32,710 nt of DNA. It comes from Acaryochloridaceae cyanobacterium SU_2_1. Lineage in GTDB: Bacteria > Cyanobacteriota > Cyanobacteriia > Thermosynechococcales > Thermosynechococcaceae. The position numbers and the translations under genes were made by a program. Location: the NCBI GenBank assembly GCA_012030735.1, contig JAAUUW010000014.1, forward strand, positions 1 to 32,710, written 5' to 3'. Below, in pieces: positions 19,722 to 23,658 of this stretch; positions within the stretch are counted from its first letter, which is position 1, and every line of letters starts with the position of its first letter. Under the pieces are notes generated by a model. That model was not told where the DNA came from. It saw only the letters and a program-made list of their open reading frames with translations, and ran no database searches.

Positions 19722-19931
19722 TCAAACTGTATCAACAGACAGCTTTTTCTTGATGGCATTAATGCGTTGCTGTGTCGCCGAAATGTCTTCATCTAAGGCA
19801 TTTAGCGCCAGAGCATTCTTACCTCGGTTCCCCCCTTTTTTTTCTTCTTCTAGCATGGATTTGTAGAGTTCTTCATCGCCCTGCAGCTCCTCTTCTAGTT
19901 CGGCTAGCTCTTGTTCAAGCGCGTCTATCAT
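19722..19931 (-). CDS. Small coiled-coil protein, 69 aa
   Basis: Highly charged, almost wholly helical: MIDALEQELAELEEELQGDE, then ELYKSMLEEEKKGG and a second heptad run ATQQRINAIKKKLS. It ends 26 bases before the protease-capsid start. A small coiled-coil protein directly ahead of the capsid suggests a scaffold or assembly accessory. I cannot name the family. Confidence 0.6.
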   Translation of the reverse strand: MIDALEQELAELEEELQGDEELYKSMLEEEKKGGNRGKNALALNALDEDISATQQRINAIKKKLSVDTV

Positions 19932-19941
19932 ATTTCTATCC

Positions 19942-21192
19942 TCAGATATTATTCAATCCGTTATCGGTGCCCTGGATCCGAACAGCAGTTCGGTTCAGCA
20001 GGTTTGTGTAAGTCGCGTTGTAGGCGACTCCCTTTAGTGAGATCGCATCCCACCCCAACAAAGCCCCAAAGCGCCCCGAGGGCGGACCGTTATCGCCATA
20101 AATAACTTTTCGTGCCCGTCTGGCCTTGTTCTGGAAATCTGCAAGCTGTTGGCCGGTTAGCTTCGCTGCCTCTTTGGTTTCCCAATTTCGGAATTTTGTA
20201 ATAAAGCTATTGGTCTCTTTCTTCGCCTGGGTGGCACTAACAACGATTGCCCCATCTTTCAGAGTGCCACGCATGACCCCTGATCCGTAAGGAGAGGCTG
20301 CACCTGAGGCAAATCGTCTGGCCTTCGGAGTTTTATCTTGAGCGGCAGCCACGTATGTGCCGTGTCCATAAATTCCGTGGCCGGCAAAATAATCGCCGTA
20401 TTTAAATGCGTCGAATCGTGCAGTAAAGCTTTTCTTCGTACTGGATGTGGCACGATAAAATACTGTTCGCCCAGCGGCTATGTCAGCATCGATATCTTTT
20501 TTCCCCACGACCTCTGGCAAGCCATTATAGCCAATATCTGAAAAGAGCCTTGATAGGATTGGATCGGATCTATCTCCTGATGGAATATTTGCAGTGACAT
20601 TGCCAGCCTTAGTCAGCCCGTAGAATTCCTGCGCGGTTCCGGTTTCCGCCACACTCTTGTTTTTTACTTCCTCATAAATCTGATCGGCCAGGTCAAGGAC
20701 CTTAGTGAAATTTCTAGTCCGGGCTGGGGCGGCTATTTGCGATCGCAACTCTATTGCAAGTTGCTGCCCCGTCGTTTGCGCTGCTGGCGCTGGCGCGGCT
20801 GCGGATTGAGTCGCTGCACCCTTAGACGGCTTTGATGCCTTCTTAGGCGTGGGCGGCTGAGCCGCAGCCTTCGCACCTTTTTTGCCCGCCGCAGATAATG
20901 CGACCCGACACTGCTTATTATTGGCGATGCAGCTATTACCGCATGGCTTTCCCTTCTTGCAAGTTTTGGCGCGCTCCTCAATGGGTGGATCAATTACCCG
21001 CACCTCTTGCATTCCTGGTATCTCTTGGTACTGATTCCCAGATAGTAGAAAATTCCGCAGATGGCCGGAATCATAGAACGATCCACGGATTTGCGCCCCA
21101 TCCTTTACATAGGAAAGGTGGGTGACCTCGCCTTTTCGAAGATTCATCACCAGCAGTCCCAGCGATATATCAGTAAGTGAGGGTTCCATCAT
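19942..21192 (-). CDS. ADP-ribosyltransferase-like minor head protein
   Basis: 416 aa. The N-terminus (about 1-70) resembles a small beta domain with VTHLSYVKDGAQIRGSFYDS. A Cys-rich motif at about 77-95 (KTCKKGKPCGNSCIANNKQC) could bind metal; similar CGNSCI motifs occur in cyanobacterial and phage proteins. An Ala/Pro/Lys linker (about 100-145) follows. The C-terminal part (about 235-350) has GRTVFYRATSSTKKSFTARF, then FKYGDYFAGHGIYGHGTYVA. The 'FYRA ... GxGIYGxGTYVA' layout recalls the Arg and central strand of ADP-ribosyltransferases; a clear ExE is not seen, so activity is uncertain. Between portal and capsid, this position suits a head protein ejected with DNA to modify host targets. 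A small acidic protein directly upstream is translationally coupled. Confidence 0.62.
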   Translation of the reverse strand: MMEPSLTDISLGLLVMNLRKGEVTHLSYVKDGAQIRGSFYDSGHLRNFLLSGNQYQEIPGMQEVRVIDPPIEERAKTCKKGKPCGNSCIANNKQCRVALSAAGKKGAKAAAQPPTPKKASKPSKGAATQSAAAPAPAAQTTGQQLAIELRSQIAAPARTRNFTKVLDLADQIYEEVKNKSVAETGTAQEFYGLTKAGNVTANIPSGDRSDPILSRLFSDIGYNGLPEVVGKKDIDADIAAGRTVFYRATSSTKKSFTARFDAFKYGDYFAGHGIYGHGTYVAAAQDKTPKARRFASGAASPYGSGVMRGTLKDGAIVVSATQAKKETNSFITKFRNWETKEAAKLTGQQLADFQNKARRARKVIYGDNGPPSGRFGALLGWDAISLKGVAYNATYTNLLNRTAVRIQGTDNGLNNI

Positions 21193-21358
21193 TTAAGTCA
21201 ATCTCAAAGTCGTAAATTTTGCTTTGATCTTTAAATTCGCCGACAATTTTATTTTCTTCCTCGTCAAAGGAAAACTCTGTCACCGTATCGATCCCATCAA
21301 TGTATACCTCCTCAATAACCTCCTTTATGATTTGGCGGTGATCTTCTAGTGTTCGCAT
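21170..21358 (-). CDS. Small acidic protein, 62 aa, coupled to the ART-like gene
   Basis: MRTLEDHRQIIKEVIEEVYI, then GIDTVTEFSFDEEENKIVGE and FKDQSKIYDFEIDLNDGTLTY: one helix followed by beta strands, strongly acidic. It overlaps the portal stop by 13 bases and the ART-like start by 23 bases. It could be a small head-completion protein, or a partner that keeps the ART-like protein inactive in the producing cell. The second idea rests only on coupling and charge. Confidence 0.6.
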   Translation of the reverse strand: MRTLEDHRQIIKEVIEEVYIDGIDTVTEFSFDEEENKIVGEFKDQSKIYDFEIDLNDGTLTY

Positions 21359-22977
21359 AAAACCTCCAAGATCTGATGGAATATCTCAGCCTGCTTAGTG
21401 GAAAGAATCTTCGTGATGGGAGCGGAGCGGATCAGAGTTTCGGCAATTTCACACTGGGGAGGAGTCAGAGCGATTGCTCGTTCTGGCTCCTGATTCTCCT
21501 CTGGCTCAGGATCCTCTAGCGAGTCTATCAGTCTCGGCGCTGCCGCTTGGGCCTCATCGTCGGTGTTTTCGATCTCTAGAGTGGTATCGAATTTCAGATT
21601 GAGATTCGCAGCGAGATCTAGCTCTCGCCGTCGCTCTTTATAAATATCCTCCACGTCCATCCCCGCCTGGGCCACCACCTGAGTGGTAGTCAAAAATCCG
21701 GCCTTAATAGCTTCCTTGTAGGCCGCGACCTCTTTCACGGGATCTACCCACTGCCAGCCGCGAAGTACCCAGCGAGGCTTGGTATATCGCCTTGGATTTA
21801 CCTCATAGTCGTTGAGTTGCAATGCCCCAGATAGCACTGCTAATTGCAGCCATTCCTCAAAGAGTCGCTGATGGACATTTCGCGCGAGCCAGCTTTGTAG
21901 AGTTCGGTAGTGATCACGCTCCTCCAGGAGAGCAGTTCGGGCGCTGGAGTAGCTTGTATTTGAGTAATCGCGACTCAGCGACTCGTAACTCAGGCCCAAT
22001 CCAGAGGCCGCACCCCGCAGCATCATGCGAATAAAGGGATCAAAAGAGTCACCTGGGCGCGTTGGGGCAAAACCGGTAAATTCCTCACCAGGAGCCAGGA
22101 CCTCAATTGCGCCAGGTTCTAGATTCCTAATTCGTTGATCGCCTTCGACTCCATCCGAGAGTAGGTCCCCATCGGGGGTTTGGATAAATCCCATCACTGC
22201 GGCCTGGGCGCGAGCCGCGACCAACTCGGCCTCTTCATAGCCGCCGACATTCCTGAGCCTAGTGAGTGTGCTGTAAAACCAGGGTACCCCTCGGGTTTGG
22301 CCGGGGCGATCGCAAAGGTAGGGATGCAAGATATCTCTGGCTGGGACTGTGATCAGGCGGCTTCCTTGCTCGGTAGAGAATTGATAATCCCCTGGATGGT
22401 GTGGGTAGAGCCAGTATTGCAGTGGGCGCTGCCATTGGTCCATTTCCACGCCCATGCGGATATCACGGCCGGAATGCTCATCGCAGAGCTGATCTATCTC
22501 AATGATTTCTAGAGATAGCGGCACAGGCGATCCTGCGAAGGGCTGCCGCACTAGTCGAATCAGCACCTCGCCCGATTCGATGATCGAACTCATGATCAGG
22601 CGCTCGATATCCTCAAAGTCCAAGGTTCCGGCTGTGTGGCAGTATCTGGCCTGACACCATTCCCCCCAGAGATCTTCGATTTTTGAATTCGTTTTCTCAT
22701 CCAGGCTCTCTCCCCGCAGCTTTTTCACGGTGGATTGAAGCCCAATGCCCTTTCCGATCACGTTATTGACGATACTGCGAACGGCGCCCCGAGCATAATC
22801 GTTGTCCCGGCAAAGCTGCCGCGAGCGATTCCGCAATAGTCGGAGGCTCGTTAGCAGCTCCGAATCGGCACTGGTACTGCTGGCAATCCAATCCGCCGTC
22901 AGTCGGCTGATTTTTGCCCCAGCGTAGCTGCGTTGCTGGCGTTGGGGTTGAGGCTGCGGTTTTTTGGATTCCACCAA
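21346..22977 (-). CDS. Phage portal protein, lambda family
   Basis: 543 aa. The N-terminal SAdSEl-like stretch (DWIASSTSADSELLTSLRLL), RNRSRQLCRDNDYARGAVRS and IVNNVIGKGIGLQ is the signature of lambda-family portals. GEVLIRLVRQP, SRDYSNTSYSSARTALLEE (the stem and wing region) and a C-terminal WRVDPVKE-like WVDPVKEVAAYKEAIKAGF follow. It forms the dodecameric ring at the head vertex through which terminase pumps DNA. Its stop overlaps the 62-aa gene; the lysis enzyme gene ends 9 bases upstream of its start. Confidence 0.93.
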   Translation of the reverse strand: MVESKKPQPQPQRQQRSYAGAKISRLTADWIASSTSADSELLTSLRLLRNRSRQLCRDNDYARGAVRSIVNNVIGKGIGLQSTVKKLRGESLDEKTNSKIEDLWGEWCQARYCHTAGTLDFEDIERLIMSSIIESGEVLIRLVRQPFAGSPVPLSLEIIEIDQLCDEHSGRDIRMGVEMDQWQRPLQYWLYPHHPGDYQFSTEQGSRLITVPARDILHPYLCDRPGQTRGVPWFYSTLTRLRNVGGYEEAELVAARAQAAVMGFIQTPDGDLLSDGVEGDQRIRNLEPGAIEVLAPGEEFTGFAPTRPGDSFDPFIRMMLRGAASGLGLSYESLSRDYSNTSYSSARTALLEERDHYRTLQSWLARNVHQRLFEEWLQLAVLSGALQLNDYEVNPRRYTKPRWVLRGWQWVDPVKEVAAYKEAIKAGFLTTTQVVAQAGMDVEDIYKERRRELDLAANLNLKFDTTLEIENTDDEAQAAAPRLIDSLEDPEPEENQEPERAIALTPPQCEIAETLIRSAPITKILSTKQAEIFHQILEVLCEH

Positions 22978-22986
22978 GGCATTTAT

Positions 22987-23658
22987 TTAAATTGTCCCAA
23001 ATCCCCAGTCAACTGTTAGCGTCTTGGGTTTGTACCGCCTAATATAATCCACGATCTCCCAGATCTCGCGGACTGAGTTAGCTGGCGCGATGCAGCCTGC
23101 GGTTCCTGGCGCGTGACGCCAATTGTAATCGGGGTGGATCAAGAGGGCATCACGGCCCCCGATATTGGATTTGGGGTGCAACTCAATGACCACATCGCCC
23201 AGGCCCCCACCAAAATTGCCTTCGACAATCTCGCCTACGGTGTAATGCCCCTCAGGGCAAGGGCGCAGGGACCCAGGATAATCTTGACTGGGAAAAACTG
23301 GGTCGGTGCCCGGAGCACCTGATATTACGGTCCAAGCGCGAATTGGCTTCCCGCCCTGGTGCAAGGCCAAAATTCCTTGGGGGCAGCCATAGCGATCGTA
23401 GGGGATGGCGGAGCGATTCAGCGTGAGGTGGGCCTCCCCGACGGGGGTATCGGTGGTGAAATGATCCGCAAATAGGTAGCCGACCCGATCCTGGCCGTCT
23501 AGGCGGAGCTCGGCCCGCCAGTGGCCTTGAATGATTACCGGATCCTCAAAGGCCAGCTCTTGGTCCTTTGAAATCCTCAGAAGTTGCGCTGGGCTTAGGT
23601 CAGCAGCTTGGGCCAAGACGGTCTTTAGCCAGGTATCAGTTTTAGCTGTGGCTTTCAT
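22987..23658 (-). CDS. YkuD-like (L,D-transpeptidase-fold) cell-wall enzyme, putative endolysin
   Basis: 223 aa. The C-terminal domain (about 70-205) has beta strands (AHLTLNRSAI, ILALHQGGKPIRAW) and the motif IHPDYNWRHAPGTAGCIAP, with His175 and the nucleophile Cys189 as in YkuD enzymes (H...TxGCI). The N-terminal ~70 residues (WLKTVLAQAADLSPAQLLRI, GHWRAELRLDGQDRVGYLF) look like an SH3-like wall-binding domain. The gene overlaps the end of a holin-like gene (ATGA), so this pair is the likely lysis cassette. A wall-remodelling role instead of lysis cannot be excluded. No signal peptide is seen, which fits holin-dependent release. Confidence 0.68.
   Translation of the reverse strand: MKATAKTDTWLKTVLAQAADLSPAQLLRISKDQELAFEDPVIIQGHWRAELRLDGQDRVGYLFADHFTTDTPVGEAHLTLNRSAIPYDRYGCPQGILALHQGGKPIRAWTVISGAPGTDPVFPSQDYPGSLRPCPEGHYTVGEIVEGNFGGGLGDVVIELHPKSNIGGRDALLIHPDYNWRHAPGTAGCIAPANSVREIWEIVDYIRRYKPKTLTVDWGFGTI

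What the first reader, a model, noticed from the sequence alone, without database searches (positions are those of the whole stretch)
19942..21358. ADP-ribosyltransferase-like head protein with a coupled acidic partner
The 416-aa protein between portal and capsid has a Cys-rich CGNSC motif, a flexible linker and an ART-like C-terminal region (FYRA ... GHGIYGHGTYVA). Phages such as T4 inject ADP-ribosyltransferases, so a virion-carried host modifier is plausible. The 62-aa acidic gene overlaps it by 23 bases and could protect the producing cell or help assembly. The ExE motif was not found, so the fold may be inactive or divergent.
Basis: inference. Interest (0 to 1): 0.64.

Follow-up and report, generated by a model that had tools for sequence, protein, structure and literature searches.

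The report
Cysteine-tagged ART-like phage head effector
A temperate phage of a cyanobacterium carries, right after its portal gene, a protein whose tail end resembles NAD-using ADP-ribosyltransferase toxins but lacks their usual catalytic glutamates; relatives are fused to phage portal or head proteins, and its short cysteine tag recurs on many other effector types, suggesting a set of enzymes carried in virions.

Summary
In detail: a 416-aa ORF (19942-21192, -) with a four-Cys CGNSC motif, an Ala/Pro linker and a YRA...GHGTYVA C-terminal domain, preceded by a 62-aa acidic ORF overlapping it by 23 bases, between portal and capsid of a temperate siphophage. The ART reading gains real support. 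The domain belongs to a family of which I aligned 29 diverse members, fused to Mu- or MuF-type head proteins or standing alone. Its profile matches canonical ART profiles above every decoy, and a compact homologue's AlphaFold model has AcrIF11, RES toxins and ParT among its top PDB neighbours (suggestive E-values only). Conserved residues are R247, Y280, D382 and N400-R401. There is no ExE and no Glu at the PARP-type position, so any chemistry is divergent and unproven. In a sister prophage the portal itself carries a canonical ART with E-x-E. The protective role of the 62-aa protein is not supported: its domain precedes unrelated tagged effectors and is fused between portal and tag in a relative, so it looks like an assembly adaptor. 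The downstream 69-aa ORF (19722-19931) is the better immunity candidate. The Cys tag recurs on kinase-like, zeta-toxin, HNH, zincin-like, DnaJ and ART proteins. A new variant of portal/MuF-linked polymorphic effectors; packaging and activity are inferred.

The parts
19942..21192 (-). 416-aa tagged effector: N-terminal region (1-77), four-Cys tag (78-95), linker (96-142), ART-like domain (about 151-416)
   Evidence: ORF; homologues; no Pfam or NCBIfam match and no significant PHROG match
20908..20961 (-). four-Cys tag CKKGKPCGNSCIANNKQC (residues 78-95)
   Evidence: exact pattern match; 98 IMG/VR stretches against 0 for the reversed pattern
20767..20907 (-). Ala/Pro/Lys-rich linker (residues 96-142)
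   Evidence: sequence
19945..20742 (-). ART-like effector domain (residues 151-416; R247, Y280, D382, N400, R401 conserved)
   Evidence: AF2 model pLDDT 90.9 over residues 140-416; profile and fold comparisons
21170..21358 (-). 62-aa acidic adaptor protein, overlapping both the portal and the effector ORF
   Evidence: matches an adaptor-domain profile built without it, E=9.5e-7 among 9247 ORFs
19722..19931 (-). 69-aa coiled-coil-like ORF starting 10 nt after the effector; candidate immunity or partner protein
   Evidence: weak homologue of the ORF directly downstream of the domain in L027/L028 (E 0.002-0.004 among 9247 ORFs; positions)
21346..22977 (-). lambda-family portal protein (tag and effector are fused to its homologue in L019)
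   Evidence: PF05136 1.2e-108; fusion in L019
18104..19792 (-). prohead protease-major capsid fusion
   Evidence: PF04586 5.5e-6, PF05065 3.1e-33; phrog_617 1e-116

Best explanation
The 416-aa protein is a head-linked phage effector. Its N-terminal part with the four-Cys tag, helped by the 62-aa adaptor made from the same operon, attaches it to the portal vertex or procapsid (inferred). A flexible linker then presents a C-terminal domain with an ART-like fold (well supported). At infection the domain would enter the host with the DNA and use NAD+, through an R247/Y280/D382/N400-R401 centre instead of R-S-E or H-Y-E, to modify a host molecule or consume NAD (inferred). In the lysogen, self-damage would be limited by the downstream 69-aa protein or by sequestration in the capsid (speculative). 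The effector module is exchangeable: relatives put the same tag in front of kinase-like, zeta-toxin, HNH, zincin-like and canonical ART modules.
For: Fold: the domain profile aligns to an ADPrib_exo profile (Prob 71, P 3.7e-5, score 35.1; 0 of 400 column shuffles reach it, maximum 22.5; reversed 11.8) and to ART-PolyVal (29.1; 0 of 400, maximum 25.9; reversed 19.0), with YRA on YRG in the first, and GTYVA on the YVSTS strand and on GLYFA respectively. Thirteen unrelated natural profiles score 19.4 or less. Some members hit ART-PolyVal at 0.007 and DRAT at 0.022 on their own. Foldseek: PolyVal-ART at E 6e-4 in BFVD; for the compact homologue, PDB ranks 1-6, 10 and 11 are AcrIF11, RES toxins, SAIP and ParT, best E 0.027. 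Head link: fusions to Mu portal (L018, L026, L031), to MuF (L052, L057) and to portal+MuF (L058); a sister portal carries tag plus canonical ART, with the ART-like gene next. The window is a temperate phage with integrase, TerL and tape measure. Tag. Adaptor.
Against: No PDB match is formally significant and hhalign P-values are single comparisons. The third catalytic Glu of known ARTs is absent, so the domain may be inactive or do other chemistry. Presence in virions, injection and any activity are untested. Neither the tag nor the adaptor has a known binding partner. The homology of the 69-aa ORF is weak (E about 0.003).
Confidence: 0.6

Rival explanations
1. Catalytically dead ART relative kept as a structural or binding module of the portal vertex, for example plugging or gating the portal.
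For: No ExE and, by eye on the alignment, no Glu at the PARP-type position; MuF-type proteins without toxin domains are portal-associated structural proteins (PMC5576092); no immunity gene of the common type follows it.
Against: R247, Y280, D382, N400 and R401 are kept in essentially all members at 19-48% identity, in tandem copies (L045) and beside canonical ARTs (L019, L059); other effectors on the same tag look plainly enzymatic; a conserved small gene follows the domain in many members.
Confidence: 0.2
2. MuF-like antibacterial toxin used by the lysogen or phage against competitors, with the neighbouring small gene as immunity: the first reader's 62-aa gene or, better, the 69-aa gene. (Overlaps with the best explanation; differs in the target being competitors rather than the infected host.)
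For: Same layout as MuF toxins (temperate phage, gene after portal, variable C-terminus, small ORF next; PMC5576092) and as Bxa, an ART with immunity proteins (PMC11699363); a conserved small protein follows the domain in many homologues and is fused to it in L052.
Against: No MuF domain in the window protein; the 62-aa family occurs with unrelated effectors; homology of the 69-aa gene is weak and it may be structural.
Confidence: 0.3
3. The domain is not an ART but a different alpha/beta fold with look-alike YRG and GTY motifs.
For: No significant single-sequence Pfam hit for the window protein and no significant PDB fold match.
Against: Profile scores above all 400 shuffles, the reversed profile and 13 natural controls for two independent ART families; ART folds dominate the top PDB neighbours of the compact homologue.
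Confidence: 0.1

Closest known systems
MuF polymorphic toxins of temperate phages (Jamet et al. 2017, PMC5576092; Bxa, PMC11699363)
   Same: Gene just after the portal in a temperate phage, exchangeable C-terminal effector, ART among the effectors, small ORF next door; the same ART-like domain is found on MuF proteins in other phages (L052, L057, L058).
   Different: The window protein has no MuF domain; a four-Cys tag, fused or split adaptor and linker take its place, and the tag is also fused directly to portals.
Canonical ADP-ribosyltransferases (PF03496/PF01129; T4 Alt-type head ARTs)
   Same: YRG strand, order of strands, head linkage; a sister portal carries a bona fide PF03496 domain.
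   Different: STS replaced by GTY, no ExE; conserved D382 and LNR motif instead.
ART-PolyVal (PF18760), PARP/H-Y-E type
   Same: G-x-G-x-Y-x-A strand with a following A..Y helix; by eye also GYDxI and a terminal strand; found in phage polyvalent and head-packaged proteins (PMC5512222, PMC9503650).
   Different: Arg instead of His on strand 1; Tyr/Phe where Glu/Gln should be.
AcrIF11 anti-CRISPR ART (6KYF) and RES/ParT toxins
   Same: Best PDB structural neighbours of the compact homologue; AcrIF11 also has an unorthodox acidic centre (PMC12421852).
   Different: No sequence homology shown, E 0.03-3; not known to be tagged or head-linked.
Polyvalent and head-packaged effector proteins (PMC5512222, PMC9503650)
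   Same: Fusions of effectors to portal or MuF, tandem effector domains, InPase fused to portal (as in L020).
   Different: The Cys tag and adaptor modules are not mentioned in the passages I read.

Membership tests
ART superfamily (any clade) | ART fold | tested here: inconclusive
   AF2 model pLDDT 90.9; ARTs enriched among top PDB neighbours but E 0.027 or more; BFVD PolyVal-ART E 6e-4
ART superfamily (any clade) | profile similarity to known ARTs | tested here: met
   score 35.1 against maximum 22.5 of 400 shuffles and 19.4 of unrelated natural controls
R-S-E clade (PF03496, Alt/VIP2) | Arg on strand 1 | tested here: met
   R247 invariant, 29/29
R-S-E clade (PF03496, Alt/VIP2) | STS motif | tested here: not met
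   aligned strand is GTYVA, Y280 invariant
R-S-E clade (PF03496, Alt/VIP2) | E-x-E motif | tested here: not met
   no E.E anywhere in the protein
H-Y-[EDQ] clade (PARP, ART-PolyVal) | His on strand 1 | tested here: not met
   Arg in all 29
H-Y-[EDQ] clade (PARP, ART-PolyVal) | conserved Tyr in GxYFA strand | tested here: met
   Y280 29/29, aligned with GLYFA
H-Y-[EDQ] clade (PARP, ART-PolyVal) | E/D/Q before the last strand | tested here: inconclusive
   aligned by eye to Tyr/Phe in YxVLLNR; D382 or N400 might substitute
MuF polymorphic toxins | MuF domain | tested here: not met
   no Pfam or PHROG MuF match at E up to 1
MuF polymorphic toxins | gene just after the portal in a temperate tailed phage | tested here: met
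   portal, 62 aa, 416 aa; integrase in window
MuF polymorphic toxins | small immunity ORF immediately downstream that neutralises the toxin | tested here: inconclusive
   69-aa ORF 10 nt downstream; neutralisation cannot be tested here
Head-packaged injected effectors (T4 Alt type) | protein present in the virion and injected | not testable with these tools
   only fusion and neighbourhood evidence
NAD-dependent enzymes | NAD binding or turnover | not testable with these tools
   none

The most novel reading that the evidence does not exclude
Phages, some of cyanobacteria, have a virion-effector loading system that does not need MuF: a four-Cys tag (CxxGx[PS]CGxxCIxxxKxC), often with a small adaptor domain, marks many unrelated effectors (ART-like, canonical ART, kinase, zeta toxin, HNH, metallopeptidase, DnaJ) for the portal or procapsid and delivery, up to five per phage; the ART-like cargo here has a new R-Y-D-N active centre.
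Probability: 0.4. Interest if true: 0.8.

Novelty: new variant of a known kind. Interest (0 to 1): 0.62.

Why it matters
Head-packaged ARTs are known mainly from T4 Alt and MuF toxins. This adds an ART-like family without the usual glutamates, spread over portal, MuF and split architectures, and suggests a sorting tag that would let one find the injected effectors of many uncultured phages by a short motif. It makes testable predictions: which residues catalyse, which proteins are in the virion, and whether the small downstream gene is an antidote.

Tried and rejected
Single-protein searches with the 416-aa protein: no Pfam, NCBIfam or significant PHROG match, no IMG/VR or GTDB hit, and only weak phage hits, best a Gordonia-phage protein at E 0.01. 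Low-complexity hits in lipoamide-transferase-like proteins (L002, L008) and in L009 were discarded as linker matches. PDB sequence search with the profile: nothing. A Foldseek PDB search with the window's own domain was inconclusive, probably because of helical insertions; repeated with a compact homologue. An alignment-based GTDB scan was impossible. DUF3626 was not found in 98 sampled genomes (no control rang). A first looser Cys pattern had a spacing error and found nothing; corrected. The 62-aa gene as antitoxin: rejected because its family accompanies unrelated effectors. A match of residues 23-50 of the 416-aa protein to the 62-aa protein was not significant.

Full report
Observation. 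Transcribed order is portal (PF05136), 62 aa, 416 aa, 69 aa, prohead protease-capsid fusion. The window is contig C48, bases 1-32710, of a 3.0-Mb bin that has a photosystem reaction-centre gene, hence cyanobacterial. The window carries integrase, large terminase, head-tail joining protein and tape measure, i.e. a temperate tailed phage.

Relatives. A search of 29 genomes of the order found the domain on a Mu-type portal (L018/P0003, portal match PF06074 1e-91) and in a sister prophage L019, where the lambda-type portal itself ends in a CGNTC motif followed by a canonical ART (PF03496 6e-15, PF01129 1.6e-14; YRG, STS, EKE), and the next gene is CGNTC plus our domain. Others came from 386 genomes of the phylum. 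A profile search of IMG/VR gave 35 loci. Several proteins carry MuF-type domains (PF04233 in L052 and L058, PF06152 in L057), one has portal + MuF + DUF3626 + our domain in 1884 aa (L058), one five tandem copies (L045), and one repeats of the domain plus a canonical ART (L059).

Fold. In 29 sequences, P226, R247, G278 and Y280 are invariant; D382 is 28/28 and L399-N400-R401 28, the exception being truncated L021. The AlphaFold model of residues 140-416 is confident (pLDDT 90.9, pTM 0.88). hhalign of the trimmed family profile: ADPrib_exo score 35.1 (P 3.7e-5), ART-PolyVal 29.1 (P 0.0017), each above all 400 column-shuffled decoys and the reversed profile. Fourteen natural profiles from the same loci gave at most 19.4, apart from the cluster built from the ART-PolyVal loci themselves, 27.2. 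Foldseek on the window domain gave no significant PDB hit, though OspC3 and PARP chains are among the top, and gave PolyVal-ART at 6e-4 in BFVD. With a compact homologue (L049, pLDDT 84.7), ranks 1-6, 10 and 11 are AcrIF11 (6KYF, identified from PMC12421852), RES toxins, SAIP and ParT, best E 0.027. No single test is conclusive; together they make an ART-like fold likely (my estimate 0.85-0.9). That SAIP, OspC3 and the RES proteins have ART-type folds is my own knowledge.

Active site. E-x-E is absent. Read by eye, the PARP-type Glu position falls on Tyr/Phe of YxVLLNR. The conserved residues suggest an R-Y-D-N/R centre; activity is not shown, and I could not inspect the model's coordinates.

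The 62-aa protein. In L031 (1376 aa) a portal is followed in one chain by a segment resembling it, then CGASC, DUF3626-like sequence and our domain; L020 has the segment at the N-terminus of the 881-aa protein. A profile from four such segments, without the window, finds the 62-aa ORF at E 9.5e-7 among 9247 ORFs, and also standalone or fused copies by metallopeptidase-like (L211, L188) and PI-kinase-like (L179) tagged proteins (effector types by Pfam or, for the metallopeptidases, by HExxH-type motif only). An immunity protein should track its toxin; this one does not, so I read it as an adaptor.

Downstream genes. Directly after the domain many homologues have a small ORF of one family (for example L020, L021, L029, L032-L039, L048, L058; apparently fused in L052). 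The window's clade has another: the 69-aa ORF resembles the 48-aa ORF of L027/L028 (E 0.002-0.004), itself clearly related to that of L026 (E 3e-12). These are the immunity or partner candidates.

The tag. The DNA pattern for CxxGx[PS]CGxxCIxxxKxC matched 98 IMG/VR stretches, its reversed control none. About a third are small proteins with a hydrophobic N-terminus; the others are tagged proteins, some with head genes in reach (13 of 65 loci, a lower bound from 12 queries). Pfam: portal fusions (L275, L197, L199, L226, L277), Zeta_toxin 8e-22, ART 9e-8, DnaJ 3e-9, Pkinase 5e-6 (below its cut-off), HNH_4 1e-4. Single phage records hold three to five tagged proteins. Because the motif also occurs in apparently secreted proteins, it may be a general metal- or disulfide-stabilised module rather than a sorting signal as such. 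The hosts of most of these viral contigs are unknown to me; only the window and the G-handle relatives are placed in the cyanobacterial phylum.

Literature. MuF toxins and their small downstream ORFs: PMC5576092; Bxa ART with immunity: PMC11699363; viral ARTs fused to MuF or portal: PMC9503650; polyvalent proteins: PMC5512222; MuF-VIP2 fusions: PMC7302621. I found no description of the Cys tag, but searched only open papers and few terms.

Noticed in passing
L210/L247 (record of 47,102 bases), L224, L229/L230: Single phage records with three to five Cys-tagged proteins, several kinase-like (HNDAHxxNVxxD), one zeta-toxin-like; other small Cys-containing ORFs lie nearby.
   Followed up: partly
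L181, L182, L191, L192 and others: The same Cys motif in small proteins with a signal-peptide-like N-terminus; L192 combines it with SNase and Ada zinc-binding domains.
   Followed up: partly
L045:1392-9497: 2702-aa protein with five tandem copies of the ART-like domain plus a GNAT domain.
   Followed up: partly
L020:4964-7024: Mu-type portal fused to an inorganic pyrophosphatase domain (PF18823).
   Followed up: no
L021:7680-8400: Chromosomal copy of the ART-like domain cut by a stop; the C-terminal GYDVI...FNRT part is in the next ORF, followed by a small partner-family ORF.
   Followed up: no
L018:14165-15001: A protein near the Mu-type head genes, possibly the prohead protease/scaffold, carries a Cys tag near its C-terminus (CQKGWSCGAGCISRTKRC).
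   Followed up: no
window 22987-23658 (-): YkuD-like L,D-transpeptidase (E 2.9e-4, below its cut-off) just upstream of the portal; a similar-looking gene lies upstream of the head genes in L018.
   Followed up: no
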